This document shows positions 419-44,743 of a stretch of DNA of 44,743 nt, in pieces; position 1 is the first letter of the stretch, and every line of letters starts with the position of its first letter. The notes beneath the pieces are model-generated. The model was not told the origin of the DNA and ran no database searches. It saw only the letters and a list, made by a program, of their open reading frames with translations. The position numbers and the translations under genes were made by a program. The DNA comes from a virus: IMG/VR virus record IMGVR_UViG_3300018025_000008, positions 1 to 44,743 of that record. One strand, given 5' to 3'.

Positions 419-1363
419 TTAACTCCTGATAGGATTGCCCAGCGCGTTGACTATCGGCCTTGCTTGGCGTAAAAGAGCATTGAAATATTCGAACGCCCGC
501 TCGCTCGGGCATTTGTCGTAATACTCCGAGCATATATTGGCCAGCGTGTTCTTCAAGTAACCGGGTGGATTCGTCGAGGAAAACCTTTTTGTCGCCCTAA
601 TCGCCTTGTCGAGCCATTTATCTTCGAAGATCGTCTGAGACAGCAGTACGACTTGCATGATCAATTCGCGCGTTTCCTCGTCTAATGGATTTTGCCGGTG
701 GGGAAATAATTCGTTCGTCACTTCCTGGCAGCGCCGGAGAAACTTCACGCGCGCAGCCTTAGTACTCAAGAATGATTTGTCGACGACGTCGTCAGACAGA
801 CAGACACAAGAAGAGGAAGTTATTTCCTTATGGGGATGCTCTGGGAGAGCAGGGGGATGCTCTGTGGAAGCATGGGGGTGCTCTGGGAGAGCAGGGGGAT
901 GCTCTGTGGAAGCACCCGATCTCTCGTAATGTAATGATGATTCGTGTGATTGATTTATGTGACTGTGTGACTGAATGTGACTTGCCGGACGCGGCCGGAT
1001 AATGTGACTGACACCTATCCAATCGATCTGATAAGCATTCGCTTTTTGGCCGCCGCTCGTGTAGCGATTTTCGGCAATTGTGATCAGTCCGGCGTGCTTT
1101 GCCAGACCTACGGTGCTGCGCGCCTTAGCCGTCGAGCAGCACAAGCCCCAGGGAGCCAGGCTAAGATCCCTATAACTTTTTAAAAGTTCTCCGGATGTGC
1201 CTCCGTGTGTTACGTTGAAAACCCATTGAATGAAAATCGATAATTCCGCATCGCAGCCGATTTTTAAAAGGGCCAATCCAAGCTGGTTTTTCCGCTCGTT
1301 AAAAGATGCCTCGGCCAGGGCAAAGGGCAATTCGTTTTGTTGCGGATTCTTTCCCAAAACCAT
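419..1363 (-). CDS. Replication initiator-like protein with winged helix and internal iterons
   Basis: A 314-residue protein starting at ATG 1363 behind AAAGGA. Residues ~45-120 look like a winged helix: helical segments followed by a GLITIAENRYTSGGQKANAY hairpin, as in replication-initiator and DnaD/lambda-O-type N-terminal domains. A low-complexity His/Ser linker and two copies of a 14-residue Pro/His repeat (ASTEHPPALPEHPH) follow, then a helical C-terminus that in lambda-O-type proteins would contact the helicase loader. The linker DNA holds four palindromic repeats (832-915), as in lambda, where the origin lies inside gene O. The order integrase, small genes, this gene fits an early replication module. 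No residue proves the role; a plain regulator is the alternative. Confidence 0.6.
   Translation of the reverse strand: MVLGKNPQQNELPFALAEASFNERKNQLGLALLKIGCDAELSIFIQWVFNVTHGGTSGELLKSYRDLSLAPWGLCCSTAKARSTVGLAKHAGLITIAENRYTSGGQKANAYQIDWIGVSHIIRPRPASHIQSHSHINQSHESSLHYERSGASTEHPPALPEHPHASTEHPPALPEHPHKEITSSSCVCLSDDVVDKSFLSTKAARVKFLRRCQEVTNELFPHRQNPLDEETRELIMQVVLLSQTIFEDKWLDKAIRATKRFSSTNPPGYLKNTLANICSEYYDKCPSERAFEYFNALLRQARPIVNALGNPIRS
832..915. repeat. Four palindromic iterons inside the initiator-like gene (candidate origin)
   Basis: Four units of alternating 20, 22, 20 and 22 bp begin at 832, 852, 874 and 894. Each has a G-run followed by TGCTCTG...AGCA. The 20-bp units contain the perfect inverted repeat TGCTCT-GGG-AGAGCA; the 22-bp units contain TGCT...AGCA arms. 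The 42-bp period keeps the reading frame open and encodes the 14-residue repeat. Position inside the putative initiator gene parallels lambda-type origins. Origin function is inferred. Confidence 0.55.
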
Positions 1364-2716: not shown

Positions 2717-3778
2717 CTAAAACAAGGTCAGTTGCCTTTCGGACTCGATCACCCGCGGCTGCGGCAAAAGATCCAGATATGGAATCACGATCTCCGGATC
2801 GGTGTAAGAATCCCGGGTCACGTTCACCGAACGGTGCATTGCCACAATCGAGGCTACCATGGGATTTTCTCTGGTAAGCGTGGTAATTGTTGCTCGCCGC
2901 AAGCCATGCGGTCCGAAATGGCGTTCTTTTGGAATAGGCGTTTTCGCCAAAATTTTCCGCCTGCAACTTTGAAACCAACCCTGAGACTTTGGCCAACCGG
3001 CAAAAGGAAACAATCGTTTTTCGCCAGGTCGATGCAGAATTTCGATTGCCTCCCGGGCGAACCGGTTGAGATAACACATTTCGTAAATTTTGTGGCCTTT
3101 CAATATCGACGCTGGAATTGTTATCCAGTCTTTTTTGTTCTGATCGACCATCTCCCATTCCAATTGCATCACGCAATCGATTCTTAATGCCGTGTTGTAA
3201 ATAAAAATTGTGATGGATTTGTGAAATAAGCCTGCGTTTAAACTGTGAAGATTGGACGTGGGTTTTGCAAATCGGCAACTGCTCAGATAGATCCCGATTT
3301 CTTCCAGCGTGGGAATTACTCTCACTGGATTTTGCACCCGGTCCGGCCGTTCCAGATAGGGCACGTCCACGATCAGTTGGGCCGCGGAGCGGTTGCGCCT
3401 GGATTTCGGCCCGGCATAGTCCAGCATTTTTTGGCCGTGCGTGCACAGCTTGCGGACCGTATTGGGCGATAGATAGGGCTTTCCCTGTCCAGGCCGATCC
3501 TGGAGGCGTTGTACAAAATCCCTTACCGTCTCCTGGTCGATCAGGCAGAGCGCCGGATTCGAGGTCAAGAGTTCCCAGAGCTTTATGAACTGGAAATAGA
3601 GCTTTATCGTCCCCGGCCGGCGCCGTCGGAGTTGCAGGTAATTCGGCAGAAAGAAAAATTCCAAAAACTGCCGCATGGACCAATGCACCGTGGGCCGCAA
3701 GTCCGGCGGCTTTTCGTCTTGATGATCCTCGGCCTGGCTGGTATCGACAATAAACGACTCCTGGGATAAAAGGGACAT
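2717..3778 (-). CDS. int: Tyrosine recombinase / integrase
   Basis: A 353-residue site-specific recombinase that would join attP to a host attB. An N-terminal SAM-like core-binding domain spans ~30-100. The catalytic domain shows R199 (NTALR), K227 (SILKGHK), H291 and R294 (PHGLR), H315 (MHRS) and nucleophile Y325 (RDSYTD), a complete tyrosine recombinase set. I chose ATG 3778, ten bases after GGAG; an upstream TTG at 3856 behind GAGGGG would add 26 residues. A tRNA-Met 3'-half sequence at 5173-5245 is the likely attP core, 1.4 kb upstream. The ~150-residue region before R199 is longer than in minimal integrases. A temperate lifestyle follows. Confidence 0.93.
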   Translation of the reverse strand: MSLLSQESFIVDTSQAEDHQDEKPPDLRPTVHWSMRQFLEFFFLPNYLQLRRRRPGTIKLYFQFIKLWELLTSNPALCLIDQETVRDFVQRLQDRPGQGKPYLSPNTVRKLCTHGQKMLDYAGPKSRRNRSAAQLIVDVPYLERPDRVQNPVRVIPTLEEIGIYLSSCRFAKPTSNLHSLNAGLFHKSITIFIYNTALRIDCVMQLEWEMVDQNKKDWITIPASILKGHKIYEMCYLNRFAREAIEILHRPGEKRLFPFAGWPKSQGWFQSCRRKILAKTPIPKERHFGPHGLRRATITTLTRENPMVASIVAMHRSVNVTRDSYTDPEIVIPYLDLLPQPRVIESERQLTLF

Positions 3779-3923
3779 TTTTGAAAAACTCCTCGAAACA
3801 AACGATCCCTCGACTTCGTAGCGGACCCGCCTCTTCGAGCATTTCAGATCCGACAAGAAAAGCCCCTCTCAGGGCAAACATAGGTTGCGGATTTGGAGCA
3901 TCTTGCCGGCAATCACTGTATTT

Positions 3924-5756: not shown

Positions 5757-6242
5757 TTAAGCGGGCGGAGTGGGCGGCGCGGGCTGGGCGCAATTTGAAA
5801 TAGCGGCTAAATGCTGGGTGAACTGCGGGCAGGCGACGATGTCCGGGACGCCGGGGGTGATGGTTGACAGACCGATGACGATCTTGGCCATCTTGATGCC
5901 GGCCTGGCTGTTGCAGTCCGGGCAAAAGGTTTTACAGTTCAGGCCGGTAAACGACGGGCAGGAGTCGCAGATCGCCAGGCGGCGGAGGGCTTCGGCCTCG
6001 CCCACCGTCTTTTTAGGATCTTCAGAGGCCTCATCAACGTTCAGGAGTGAATCGATCGTTTTCAGCAGCACCGCCCGGCGTTTGGCCTTTTCCTCGGTGC
6101 GAATGATGGGCGTTTTAGGCGCAGGCCTGGCCGGCGTGCAAGGTTTCTTGGGCAGATTCGGCCCAAAGGGCCGGTTTAGCTTGAACCCGCAAACCGAGCA
6201 TCGTGTTTTAGCGCCGTCGGGCTGCCATTGACAATAAGCCAT
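5757..6242 (-). CDS. Zinc-binding protein (161 aa), paralogue A
   Basis: The protein begins MAYCQWQPDGAKTRCSVCGF, identical in all but one position to the gene at 7728-8237, so the two are duplicates. Cys pairs at the N-terminus (C4, CSVC) and later (CDSCPSFTGLNCKTFCPDC) suggest two zinc sites; the second resembles ribbons of small phage and host proteins of unknown role. The intervening segment is Pro/Lys-rich. I start at ATG 6242 by comparison with the paralogue; ATG 6245 overlaps the stop of the excisionase-like gene (ATGA). Compared with the paralogue it lacks one of two tandem EDPKKTV copies and has a Pro-rich C-terminus. Confidence 0.75.
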   Translation of the reverse strand: MAYCQWQPDGAKTRCSVCGFKLNRPFGPNLPKKPCTPARPAPKTPIIRTEEKAKRRAVLLKTIDSLLNVDEASEDPKKTVGEAEALRRLAICDSCPSFTGLNCKTFCPDCNSQAGIKMAKIVIGLSTITPGVPDIVACPQFTQHLAAISNCAQPAPPTPPA

Positions 6243-6418
6243 CATCGATCCTTTTTCGGCCTGCCCACGCGCCGCTTTATTTTGCGGAATTTTTTCAACT
6301 CCGATTCCTCGATGAAAAAGTCCCGGCCGACTTTTTGCCCCAGGCGGCCCGATCGGCAAAACTGCTGGACGCGGCGAATCGAGACGCCGAGTTTAGCGGC
6401 AACTTCATTCGTGAGCAT
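6242..6418 (-). CDS. Excisionase/MerR-like helix-turn-helix protein (58 aa)
   Basis: ATG 6418 is seven bases after AGGA. The protein, starting MLTNEVAAKLGVSIRRVQQF, is a typical winged helix of the HTH_17/excisionase family: a helix-turn-helix at ~2-22, then GRLGQKVGRDFFIEESEL as the wing and final helix. Its tail is basic (KIKRRVGRPKKDR). Such proteins bind DNA as recombination directionality factors or small regulators. The stop overlaps the start region of the zinc gene, so they are co-translated. It could be the excisionase for the integrase 2.4 kb away or a local regulator. Confidence 0.8.
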   Translation of the reverse strand: MLTNEVAAKLGVSIRRVQQFCRSGRLGQKVGRDFFIEESELKKFRKIKRRVGRPKKDR

Positions 6419-7688: not shown

Positions 7689-7757
7689 ATGCGCTTAAAA
7701 AAGGAAGCCAAAAAGCCGCAAAAAGATTTAGTTCGTGTCGAACTCGGCGCAATTTGA
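7689..7757 (+). CDS. Short plus-strand reading frame with strong ribosome site
   Basis: ATG 7689 is eight bases after AGGAGG, and the 22-residue product is highly basic (MRLKKEAKKPQKDLVRVELG). It overlaps the 3' end of the zinc gene on the other strand. The good ribosome site and sudden end suggest the start of a gene cut off when the duplication formed, rather than a functional peptide. Confidence 0.25.
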   Translation: MRLKKEAKKPQKDLVRVELGAI

Positions 7758-8237
7758 AATAGCCACTAAATGCCTGGTGAATTTCGGGCATGGCGTAATA
7801 TCAGATACGCCGGGGGTAATGGTCGATAGGCCGAGGACGATCTTGGCCATCTTGATGCCGGCCTGGCTGTTGCAGTCCGGGCAAAGAGTTTTACAGTTCA
7901 GGCCTGTAAACGAAGGGCAGGCGTCGCAGATCGCAAGGCGGCGCATCGATTCGGCTTCGCCCACGGTCTTTTTTGGATCTTCAACGGTCTTTTTTGGATC
8001 TTCAGAGGACTCGGTAACGGCCAACAGGCTTTCAATTGTTTTCAAGAGCACCACTCGGCGCTTGGCCTTTTCCTCGGCCGGAATCGCCTCATTGCGGATT
8101 ACGGGCGTTTTTGGCGGAGGACTCGGCATGGTGCAAGGTTTCTTGGGCAGATTCGGCCCAAAGGGACGCTCCAAGGGAAACCCGCAGATCGAGCATCGTG
8201 TTTTAGCGCCGTCGGGTTGCCATTGACAATAAGCCAT
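7728..8237 (-). CDS. Zinc-binding protein (169 aa), paralogue B
   Basis: The product starts MAYCQWQPDGAKTRCSICGF at ATG 8237 and is close to the gene at 5757-6242 over nearly the whole length. The Cys sites are C4 with CSIC, and CDACPSFTGLNCKTLCPDC near residues 115-133. It carries two tandem EDPKKTV copies where paralogue A has one, a local in-frame duplication visible in the DNA at about 7970-8000. It follows the large tail gene by 79 bases, so it may be the last gene of the late operon. Function unknown; zinc binding is inferred from Cys spacing. Confidence 0.75.
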   Translation of the reverse strand: MAYCQWQPDGAKTRCSICGFPLERPFGPNLPKKPCTMPSPPPKTPVIRNEAIPAEEKAKRRVVLLKTIESLLAVTESSEDPKKTVEDPKKTVGEAESMRRLAICDACPSFTGLNCKTLCPDCNSQAGIKMAKIVLGLSTITPGVSDITPCPKFTRHLVAISNCAEFDTN

Positions 8238-39031: not shown

Positions 39032-39664
39032 TTATTTTCTCTGGCAGTACCACTGGACGAATTGTTCGACGTTCATGCCGCCGACGTGCTCGGCAAGGGT
39101 TCGCGAATCGCCCTCTTTCGCGCCCGGATCGATCAGCACGAGCGTGGGAACACGATTGCTCACCACCGGGTCCGGCACTTCCTTGACTGCGGCCGCTTCC
39201 GGCAAGTGCAAAGGCAATAAAACGTCTTTTCCCAAAATCGCCTTCACGCGTGGATCCGGCAGCACGGTTTTCTTTAGATACGCGCAGGGCTGGCAGCCGT
39301 CTCCGTAAAAAAAAAGCAAGAGTTTTGCCTTTTGGGCCCGGGCCTTGTACAGGGCGTCGTAATAATCGCCCATCGCGCCTTCGACTTTCGGCTTGGCATC
39401 GGCAACCGCCGCTACGACGTTCAACTCAGTTACGCTCGATTTTTCGGGAACATCGGCGATTTTAATGGGCTGGGGATTTTCGTCGGGTTTTGGCGGATCG
39501 ATTGCCGGTGCGATCACGGGTTTCTGAACGTCGGTCGCGGGTAGAACGATTTGCGGGGCCGGCAAGATTTTTTTAGGCTGCTGTGGATTGCTCAATAGAA
39601 ATAAGGCCAGCAAGCCCATTATAGGCAGAAGTAAAGCGATAAAATTGGTGCGCGTGAATTTCAT
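39032..39664 (-). CDS. Membrane-anchored thioredoxin-like protein with CQPC (210 aa)
   Basis: MKFTRTNFIALLLPIMGLLA gives an N-terminal membrane segment (~8-25), followed by a Pro/Lys-rich linker (~27-80) and a thioredoxin domain. The redox motif is C124-Q-P-C127 within LLFFYGDGCQPCAYLKKTVL, and the cis-Pro is P173 (NRVPTLVLID). This orientation puts the domain outside the inner membrane. Such proteins reduce or form disulfides in the periplasm. The adjacent gene (39672) is a second possible thioredoxin-fold protein without CxxC. An extracytoplasmic thioredoxin in a phage late module is uncommon. Confidence 0.85.
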   Translation of the reverse strand: MKFTRTNFIALLLPIMGLLALFLLSNPQQPKKILPAPQIVLPATDVQKPVIAPAIDPPKPDENPQPIKIADVPEKSSVTELNVVAAVADAKPKVEGAMGDYYDALYKARAQKAKLLLFFYGDGCQPCAYLKKTVLPDPRVKAILGKDVLLPLHLPEAAAVKEVPDPVVSNRVPTLVLIDPGAKEGDSRTLAEHVGGMNVEQFVQWYCQRK

Positions 39665-42389: not shown

Positions 42390-42569
42390 GGCAACATCGC
42401 GGGCTCAAAAAAACCAAGAGATGTTGCCAGGGGTTAATCTAATCCCGGGGTGGCCAAAAAACCAGCATTTTCAGGAAAATGGGGAAGATAAGGAGTTTCC
42501 CGATAAGGAGTTAGGCAGAAAATAAAAAAGCCGGCAGGGTTTGGCAACATCTCAAATTCATCTTGAGAT
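42390..42569. promoter_or_regulatory. Operator-like region: three GGCAACATC sites and a hairpin
   Basis: GGCAACATC occurs at 42390-42398 (plus), 42429-42418 (minus, TGGCAACATCTC) and 42542-42553 (plus, TGGCAACATCTC; 12 of 12 bases identical to the second). The first two form an inverted repeat across about 20 bp. The third overlaps a 7-bp hairpin ATCTCAA/TTGAGAT (42549-42569). Positions upstream of ATG 42342 suggest operators for the regulator. Confidence 0.6.
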
Positions 42570-42759
42570 TCCCGGCCGGCGGCGGATCGATCGTGAGACC
42601 GATTATAACACGCCGACCGGCAAAAATAACCAGCAAAATTCGCCATAACTCCTTGTCCAGCTTAACAATAAGCTGCTAGCAGGCGGAGTTCAGTTATAAC
42701 TTAACTCGCGAGGATTTCACCAAAGAGGGCACGAAGTGCAAAGAATCAGAATGCTAATC

Positions 42760-42800
42760 TTAGGCATTGATATACTTAACGCACCAATATTGTGTGTCAA
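42760..42800 (-). promoter_or_regulatory. Possible leftward promoter
   Basis: Minus-strand TTGACA at 42800-42795 is followed 16-20 bp later by TAAGTATATC, which offers imperfect -10 boxes. The 42570-42823 stretch otherwise shows no gene, and contains CTGCTAGCAG and GTTATAAC palindromes near 42673 and 42713. Confidence 0.4.
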
Positions 42801-42823
42801 GTAAGTCGTTGCCTTACCATTTA

Positions 42824-43057
42824 CTAAGGGGGCTGGAATAATTTTTGGAATAATTTCCCGGTTATTTCACGAATTAATCCAGGCTGAGTTTTGCCGGCAG
42901 TTTGTAATAGATTATCACTTTTTTGTGATAAAGTGAGCCGTTTTGGCAATAAATGAGCCGATTTATGTGATAATTGAATCGATTTGCCCATTGCCGGCAG
43001 TTCGATGGGCAAGGAGAATTTTTCGCCGGATTCGGTTTTTCCCAAAAAAATACTCAT
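42824..43057 (-). CDS. Small hypothetical protein (77 aa)
   Basis: The start overlaps the preceding stop (TAATG). The protein starts MSIFLGKTESGEKFSLPIEL, then contains Ser/Lys/Leu-rich stretches (IQLSHKSAHLLPKRLTLSQK) that come from DNA with short direct repeats (GTGATAA, TGAGCCG). It is basic overall. The first ~20 residues resemble starts of small domains in ATPase-type proteins, but no motif follows. May be truncated. Not recognised. Confidence 0.5.
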   Translation of the reverse strand: MSIFLGKTESGEKFSLPIELPAMGKSIQLSHKSAHLLPKRLTLSQKSDNLLQTAGKTQPGLIREITGKLFQKLFQPP

Positions 43058-43470: not shown

Positions 43471-44358
43471 CTAAATAAGAACTAATTGGCTGCGCGAGAA
43501 CTTTTGCAGATCGGCGACTTTTTCCCGGTTCGCCGCGTAGTACCGGCGATTGGTCTCGGCGACTTTTTCCCGGTTTGCCGCTCTGTACTGGCGATTGATC
43601 TCGGCGATTTTTTCCCGATTCGCCGCTCTATACAGGCGATTGGCCTCGGCGACTTTTTCCCGGTTCGCCGCGTAGTACCGGCGATTGGCCTCGGCGACTT
43701 TTTCCCGATTCGCCGCTCTGTACCGGCGCTTAATCTCGGCGACTTTTTCCCGATTCGCCGCTCTGTACCGGCGATTGGCCTCGGTGACTTTTTCCCGGTT
43801 CGCCGCGTAGTACCGGCGCTTAATCTCGGCGACTTTTTCCCGATTCGCCGCTCTGTACCGGCGATTGGCCTCGGTGACTTTTTCCCGGTTCGCCGCGTAG
43901 TACCGGCGATGGGTCTCGGCGACTTTTTCCCGATTCGCCGCTATGTACCGGCGATTGATCTCGGCGATTTTTTCCCGATTCGCCGCTCTGTACCGGCGAT
44001 TGGCCTCGGCGACTTTTTCCCGGTTCGCCGCGTAGTACCGGCGCTTGATCTCGGCGATTTTTTCCCGGTTCGCCGCTCTGTACCGGCGATTGGCCTCGGC
44101 GACTTTTTCCCGGTTCGCCGCGTAGTACCGGCGCTTGATCTCGGCGACTTTTTCCCGGTTCGCCGCTGTGTACCGGCGATGGGTCTCGGCGACTTTTTCC
44201 CGATTCGCCGCGTGATTAATTTGATTGGGGATATTTATATTTAATCGTTTTTTCGCGATGCAAGCAGGGCAAGGTTCAATGAAGATGCAGGCCTGACAAC
44301 CATCGCAACGGTATTTTTTTACAGTTTTAAATTTAATTGTTGAAGACTGAGCGATCAT
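43471..44358 (-). CDS. 15-residue tandem-repeat protein with N-terminal zinc knuckle (295 aa)
   Basis: The N-terminus has CDGCQACIFIEPCPAC (~18-33), four or five Cys suited to one or two zinc sites. Sixteen copies of a 15-residue unit (consensus AANREKVAEANRRYR) follow from ~48 to ~285, and the protein ends QKFSRSQLVLI. Units are helical, highly charged and alternate in a higher-order pattern (ANR with IKR or INR). Phage proteins with similar N-R-E-K-type units occur next to HNH or Vsr-like domains, but no nuclease motif is seen here. It lies seven bases after the solenoid gene. It may bind nucleic acid via the basic repeats. Confidence 0.75.
   Translation of the reverse strand: MIAQSSTIKFKTVKKYRCDGCQACIFIEPCPACIAKKRLNINIPNQINHAANREKVAETHRRYTAANREKVAEIKRRYYAANREKVAEANRRYRAANREKIAEIKRRYYAANREKVAEANRRYRAANREKIAEINRRYIAANREKVAETHRRYYAANREKVTEANRRYRAANREKVAEIKRRYYAANREKVTEANRRYRAANREKVAEIKRRYRAANREKVAEANRRYYAANREKVAEANRLYRAANREKIAEINRQYRAANREKVAETNRRYYAANREKVADLQKFSRSQLVLI
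43497..44220. repeat. 16 x 45-bp coding tandem repeat
   Basis: A 45-bp unit encoding the 15-residue repeat, with a partial 90-bp higher-order pattern (alternating CGCGTAG and CGCTCTG ends). Variation is mostly in the last three codons. The complementary strand also stays open (43486-44244), as a by-product of the repeat. Copy number is likely to vary. Confidence 0.9.
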
Positions 44359-44365
44359 GATATAA

Positions 44366-44743
44366 TTAGTGTTTGTTGCGTTTAATTTTTTTGATAATTG
44401 AATCCAGCATATAAACTCCGCCCACGCTGTCGGGCAGCTTGAAATTGTCCGGGACCGAGGTCAGGCCGCGGAGATCCAGGGAGCCGCCCACGCTGTCGGG
44501 CAGCTTGAAATTGTCCGGGACCGAGGTCAGGCCGCCGAGATCCAGGGAGCCGCCCACGCTGTCGGGCAGCTTGAAATTGTCCGGGACCGAGGTCAGGCCG
44601 CCGAGATCCAGGTCGCAGCCCACGCTGTCGGGCAGCTTGAAATTGTCCGGGACCGAGGTCAGGCCGCGGAGATCCAGGGAGCTGCCCACGCTGTCGGGCA
44701 GCTTGAAATTGTCCGGGACCGAGGTCAGGCCGCGGAGATCCAG
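44366..44743 (-). CDS. Leucine-rich-repeat-like solenoid protein, C-terminal part
   Basis: The frame is open to the right edge and carries five copies of the 22-residue unit LTSVPDNFKLPDSVGG(S/C)LDL, then the C-terminus VYMLDSIIKKIKRNKH. The unit length of 66 bp and sequence match the part at 1-414, which supplies the start, so this is one gene interrupted by the window ends. At the junction the contig reads CTG-CTG where normal units have a single CTG, so a three-base overlap (CAG) must be removed. The apparent GTG start at 44689 is not real. Confidence 0.75.
   Translation of the reverse strand: MDLRGLTSVPDNFKLPDSVGSSLDLRGLTSVPDNFKLPDSVGCDLDLGGLTSVPDNFKLPDSVGGSLDLGGLTSVPDNFKLPDSVGGSLDLRGLTSVPDNFKLPDSVGGVYMLDSIIKKIKRNKH

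What the first reader, a model, noticed from the sequence alone, without database searches (positions are those of the whole stretch)
832..915. Palindromic iterons within the initiator-like gene
Seen: four G-rich units with TGCTCT-GGG-AGAGCA-type palindromes in a linker of a winged-helix protein. Known: lambda ori lies inside gene O as iterons bound by O. Inference: this is the phage replication origin.
Basis: partly seen in the sequence, partly recalled or inferred. Interest (0 to 1): 0.6.

Follow-up and report, generated by a model that had tools for sequence, protein, structure and literature searches.

The report
Phage replication origin inside initiator gene
Four 21-letter repeats inside one early gene of an uncultivated phage are most likely the phage's replication origin, embedded in the gene of the protein that would bind it, as in phage lambda; related phages carry differently spelled repeats in the same place.

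Summary
In detail: four 21-bp units (cores 837-851, 858-872, 879-893, 900-914) lie mid-gene in ORF 419-1363 (-). Two of the four palindromes are perfect, two imperfect. On its own the array is ambiguous: 21 bp is seven codons, this genome has other in-frame protein repeats, and the palindrome is only modestly beyond chance (P about 0.02-0.03).

Comparison settles most of it. A 22%-identical homolog in a related phage has five 21-bp units of unrelated sequence at the same place. Four more initiator genes of terminase-related phages, recognised as replication initiation/O-like proteins, also carry linker repeats; two have 22-bp spacing, out of reading frame. That is 6 of 6 initiator genes against 5 of 152 other ORFs.

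It overlaps the locally least stable DNA (918-977), next to the array.

Best reading: a lambda-type in-gene iteron origin in an undescribed initiator family; a new member of a known kind. Binding and origin activity are untested. P0001 itself matches no curated family, and GC skew is uninformative.

The parts
419..1363 (-). Putative replication initiator gene (P0001, 314 aa): N-terminal helical, HTH-like region (about residues 7-102), linker (about 103-195), C-terminal helical domain (about 196-309)
   Evidence: ORF; helix layout from a low-confidence model; homolog in G015 aligned over both domains at 22% identity, BLASTP E 8e-8. No Pfam/PHROG hit of its own.
830..914 (.). Array of four 21-bp iteron-like units; 15-bp cores at 837-851, 858-872, 879-893, 900-914, units 1 and 3 perfectly palindromic (TGCTCT-GGG-AGAGCA)
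   Evidence: same-position arrays in five related initiator genes
945..1009 (.). Second cluster of short direct repeats, TGTGAYT at 945, 958, 966, 976, 1003, in two reading frames
   Evidence: Only 7-mer in the genome found 4 or more times within 60 bp; 0/200 simulated genomes; P < 5e-5 under synonymous recoding
918..977 (.). Candidate unwinding segment: least stable 60 bp of 700-1200, 98th percentile of the genome, up to 70% A+T, abutting the array on the gene-upstream side
782..820 (-). Perfect 12-bp palindrome GACGACGTCGTC (782-793) next to a pyrimidine-rich tract on the gene strand; a similar element (pyrimidine tract plus GTCGTCGACGAC) lies downstream of the array in G015
   Evidence: marginal by itself (E 0.06-0.17 within the gene pair); role unknown

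Best explanation
The segment 782-1009, with the 21-bp array 830-914 at its heart, is the replication origin of this temperate-looking phage, lying inside the gene of its initiator. Proposed mechanism: the initiator (P0001), made from the early minus-strand operon that follows the integrase gene, binds the palindromic 21-bp units through its N-terminal domain, one dimer per unit, all on one face of the helix because 21 bp is two turns. The resulting complex bends and strains the DNA so that the flanking low-stability, TGTGAYT-bearing segment (918-977) opens; the C-terminal domain then recruits host helicase or its loader, since no phage helicase or polymerase was recognised among the ORFs scanned. 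Shown here: the repeats, their position, the conserved architecture with changed sequence in relatives, out-of-frame spacing in relatives, frame-independent short repeats, low duplex stability. Inferred: DNA binding, dimerisation, unwinding, helicase recruitment, origin activity.
For: (1) Array real, 21-bp phasing. (2) A 22%-identical homolog in related phage G015, also downstream of an integrase and 9 nt after a 5'-3' exonuclease gene, has 4.9 perfect copies of an unrelated 21-bp unit in the same linker, preceded by a 16-bp-arm inverted repeat. (3) Related phages' initiators, identified by PHROG families of replication initiation/O-like proteins (G006, G007, G011, G012), all carry linker repeats with lags 21/42, 22/44, 33/66 and 22/42/64; the 22-bp lags cannot be protein repeats. 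(4) 6/6 initiator genes against 5/152 other ORFs pass one repeat threshold that lambda O itself would miss, Fisher P 2e-8. (5) TGTGAYT cluster selected at DNA level. (6) Low-stability segment adjacent. (7) Lambda layout for comparison: four iterons 20-24 bp apart at 39-48% of gene O, AT-rich tract alongside. (8) No rival initiator, helicase or polymerase recognised in the ORFs scanned.
Against: The array is a multiple of three and encodes clean heptads, as a plain protein repeat would; the same genome has in-frame arrays in other genes (45 bp at 43511-44213, 66 bp at the contig ends, 21 bp x2 at 7963-8004). P0001 matches no curated family and its structure model is poor. Two of four palindromes are imperfect and the palindrome P is only 0.02-0.03. 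The array itself is GC-rich (37% A+T) and the AT-rich flank lies on the opposite side from lambda's. GC skew minimum is at 3191. Three of the five comparison genes were first noticed because of their repeats, although the family searches then found them independently.
Confidence: 0.78

Rival explanations
1. Plain coding minisatellite: the 21-bp units are only an in-frame tandem duplication encoding a flexible Pro/His-rich linker, with no role as DNA sites.
For: Period is seven codons; 42-bp dimer duplicated at 97%, typical of recent slippage; other in-frame repeat genes in the same genome; two palindromes imperfect.
Against: Linker repeats recur in every initiator gene found in the clade, with unrelated sequences and out-of-frame 22-bp lags in two; the adjacent TGTGAYT cluster is frame-independent and not explained by coding.
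Confidence: 0.13
2. The repeats are operator sites for autoregulation: the protein is a transcription factor or the initiator represses its own gene, and replication starts elsewhere.
For: HTH-like N-terminal region; palindromic sites are typical of dimeric regulators; many iterons also serve in autoregulation (general knowledge).
Against: Sites lie mid-gene rather than at a promoter; linker position is conserved across phages and in four of them the protein is recognised as a replication initiation protein. Not exclusive with the origin reading.
Confidence: 0.05
3. The true origin is the AT-rich, largely non-coding stretch about 42434-43057, which carries a degenerate 21-bp repeat (42920-42985) and an inverted repeat TTATCAC-N6-GTGATAA (42912-42931); the gene array is incidental or auxiliary.
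For: GC falls to 0.425 there; repeats of period 21, 73% match; conserved in G001.
Against: Repeats are more degenerate, they overlap a small ORF (42824-43057), and nothing ties them to an initiator; they could equally be operator or promoter DNA.
Confidence: 0.06

Closest known systems
Phage lambda gene O / ori-lambda (four iterons in gene O)
   Same: Four repeats near the middle of the initiator gene, about two helical turns apart, each an inverted repeat, next to a low-stability segment (PMC7466680)
   Different: Iteron sequence unrelated; spacing exactly 21 bp and in frame (lambda 20, 24, 23); unstable segment on the gene-upstream side; initiator not detectably homologous; no recognised P-like loader
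Lactococcal phages TP901-1 (ORF13) and Tuc2009 (Rep2009) replisome organizers with in-gene origin
   Same: Initiator binds a direct-repeat region inside its own gene that serves as origin (PMC8965321)
   Different: Host group and protein family differ; sequences not compared here
O-like initiators of the terminase-related phages G006, G007, G011, G012 (PHROG 270, 678, 9474, 391)
   Same: Same phage clade by terminase; repeats in the linker of the initiator
   Different: Their proteins are recognised initiators; P0001 and its G015 homolog are not recognised and appear to be a separate initiator lineage

Membership tests
In-gene iteron origin (lambda ori type) | Array of directly repeated sites inside the initiator gene | tested here: met
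   four units at 830-914 in ORF 419-1363
In-gene iteron origin (lambda ori type) | Each site an inverted repeat | tested here: inconclusive
   Units 1 and 3 perfect, units 2 and 4 imperfect; P 0.02-0.03
In-gene iteron origin (lambda ori type) | Repeats under DNA-level rather than protein-level constraint | tested here: met
   Not shown by the in-frame 21-bp array alone; met by the TGTGAYT cluster in two frames and by 22-bp lags in relatives G007 and G012
In-gene iteron origin (lambda ori type) | Easily unwound AT-rich tract adjacent | tested here: met
   918-977 least stable locally, 98th percentile; weaker than lambda (70% against 80% A+T over 40 bp) and on the other side
In-gene iteron origin (lambda ori type) | Encoded protein binds the repeats; segment drives replication | not testable with these tools
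   needs binding and plasmid replication assays
Phage replication initiation protein, O-like families (PHROG 270/391/678, Pfam HTH_36) | Sequence match to a family profile | tested here: not met
   P0001: no hit. Its homolog reaches only E 0.002-0.03 to O-like/primosomal families. Hence not filed as a family member; it works like one
Phage replication initiation protein, O-like families (PHROG 270/391/678, Pfam HTH_36) | N-terminal winged helix, linker, C-terminal loader-contact domain | tested here: inconclusive
   Helical N-terminal region, low-confidence linker, helical C-terminal domain, but mean pLDDT 52.7 and no PDB match

The most novel reading that the evidence does not exclude
This is a new, sequence-unrecognisable family of phage initiators whose in-gene origin has two different repeat systems: the palindromic 21-bp units for the phage initiator and the TGTGAYT cluster in the opening segment for a second factor (a host protein such as DnaA, or single-strand-specific contacts of the initiator), within a phage clade that has repeatedly re-coined its iterons at one fixed place in non-homologous initiator genes.
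Probability: 0.3. Interest if true: 0.5.

Novelty: new member of a known kind. Interest (0 to 1): 0.36.

Why it matters
It gives a testable origin for an uncultivated phage group with no described replication system. It also shows that the lambda arrangement (origin inside the initiator's linker) recurs in initiators too diverged to be recognised by sequence. An in-gene palindromic array with about 21-bp phasing can therefore serve to recognise initiator genes that profile searches miss.

Tried and rejected
Direct family assignment of P0001 (Pfam, PHROGs, PDB by sequence): nothing. Close relatives in IMG/VR, GTDB genomes, phage and plasmid collections: only the same phage. AlphaFold with a two-sequence alignment: low confidence; Foldseek hits are meaningless helical proteins. 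GC skew: minimum at 3191, shallow; in G015 it does not point to its array either. Whole-gene maximum inverted repeat: not significant for the window (142 of 300 shuffles as long), significant for G015 and G012. E. coli-type DnaA boxes: none in the gene. G010 hit of PHROG 678: lies in a protease/capsid-like ORF by its own sequence, so it was not counted. Rfam: no match. G-quadruplex reading: G runs are present but interrupted by a 17-nt loop; not pursued.

Full report
WHAT IS THERE. The window is a 44,743-base virus record, apparently a circular tailed-phage genome cut inside a 66-bp repeat, since the same 66-bp unit is at both ends. Nearly all genes are on the minus strand. Downstream of an integrase gene (2717-3856; PF00589 and PHROG 1) come two small ORFs and then ORF 419-1363 (314 aa, P0001). 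At 48-57% of that gene lie four 21-bp units. Their 15-bp cores begin at 837, 858, 879 and 900. Cores 1 and 3 are TGCTCT-GGG-AGAGCA; cores 2 and 4 are TGCTCTGTGGAAGCA, palindromic only in the outer four bases.

IS IT MORE THAN A PROTEIN REPEAT? Taken alone, this is not certain. Twenty-one bases are seven codons, the encoded heptads ASTEHPP/ALPEHPH are clean, and this genome has other in-frame repeat genes. The palindrome beats synonymous recoding and shuffling only at P 0.030 and 0.019, although the strand folds better than shuffles (z -3.8). The direct repeats exceed every synonymous-codon shuffle, but recent duplication would also give that.

COMPARATIVE EVIDENCE. Searching P0001 finds only the same phage in other contigs (identical over this region). 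Relatives were therefore reached through the terminase and portal genes, and their whole records were searched. One record, G015 (IMGVR_UViG_3300041809_001881), has a homolog of both the N- and C-terminal parts (22% identity, pairwise E 8e-8). It also stands downstream of an integrase and directly after a 5'-3' exonuclease gene. Between its two domains are 4.9 perfect copies of TTCAGATACCCAGGGTGGAGC. The period is again 21 and the place is the same, but the sequence is unrelated. A perfect inverted repeat with 16-bp arms precedes them.

Independent PHROG searches over 21 records identify replication initiation/O-like proteins in G006, G007, G011 and G012. All four carry repeats in the linker: 21-bp in G006, 22-bp in G007, 33-bp with 10-bp-arm palindromes in G011, and 42/22-bp with a 12-bp-arm palindrome in G012. 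A 22-bp lag shifts the reading frame, so in G007 and G012 it is DNA, not protein, that repeats. With one common threshold 6 of 6 initiator genes, but 5 of 152 other ORFs of the same phages, contain such repeats (Fisher P 2e-8). Lambda O would score 9 on this scale, below the threshold of 14. Caveat: G006, G007 and G011 were first noticed through their repeats and only then recovered by the family searches; G012 and G015 were found without regard to repeats.

Immediately gene-upstream of the array, TGTGAYT occurs at 945, 958, 966, 976 and 1003. TGTGACT is the only 7-mer of the genome present four times within 60 bp; none of 200 simulated genomes has such a cluster. Synonymous recoding never reproduces five copies in 20,000 trials. 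The copies fall in two reading frames, so they are constrained as DNA. The same stretch (918-977) is the least stable 60 bp of 700-1200, in the 98th percentile of the genome. On the other side, a pyrimidine tract and a 12-bp palindrome GACGACGTCGTC (782-793) resemble a tract with GTCGTCGACGAC at the same place in G015. This last element is suggestive only.

MECHANISM. In lambda, O binds four iterons in the middle of gene O, each an imperfect 19-bp inverted repeat, and an adjacent AT-rich tract opens (PMC7466680; coordinates: spacings 20, 24, 23 bp). The window has the same parts: phased palindromic sites, an easily opened flank, and a gene with DNA-binding-like and C-terminal domains in an early operon. 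No other initiator, helicase or polymerase was recognised among the ORFs scanned. The most likely mechanism is binding of P0001 to the units, strain-driven opening of 918-977, and recruitment of the host helicase through the C-terminal domain. All three steps are inferred.

WHAT IS NOT SUPPORTED. P0001 has no curated family match, its model is of low confidence (mean pLDDT 52.7), and structure search finds nothing. Hence 'winged helix' is an inference from its homolog's weak matches. GC skew has its minimum at 3191, is shallow, and cannot decide. The AT-rich flank lies on the opposite side from lambda's.

RIVALS. The main ones are a coding minisatellite (0.13), an operator (0.05), and an origin in the AT-rich stretch 42434-43057, which has a degenerate 21-bp repeat of its own (0.06).

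NOVELTY. In-gene origins are known for lambdoid phages and for lactococcal TP901-1 and Tuc2009 (PMC8965321). This is a new member of that kind, in an initiator lineage that profile searches do not recognise.

Noticed in passing
window 44418-44743 and 1-132: A 66-bp coding repeat (LDLRGLTSVPDNFKLPDSVGG, leucine-rich-like) spans both contig ends, so the record is probably a circular genome cut inside the array; contigs of the same phage (L002, G001) also break in repeat arrays.
   Followed up: partly
window 43471-44358 (-): Gene made of about 16 copies of a 15-residue repeat (AANREKVAEANRRYR); next to the other repeat gene.
   Followed up: no
window 42912-42985: AT-rich inverted repeat TTATCAC-N6-GTGATAA followed by degenerate 21-bp repeats, largely intergenic; possible operator or auxiliary origin.
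   Followed up: partly
L032:3531-3575 (G015): Perfect inverted repeat with 16-bp arms and 12-nt loop, followed by TTTT, inside the initiator gene just before its iterons; looks like an intrinsic terminator within a coding region.
   Followed up: no
window 5757-6359 and 7728-8237 (-): Two paralogous small cysteine-rich ORFs (CSVCGF...CPDCNSQAG), apparently duplicated within the phage; weak match to a zinc-ribbon-like output domain.
   Followed up: no
window 39032-39664 (-): Thioredoxin-like protein (PF13899) encoded by the phage.
   Followed up: no
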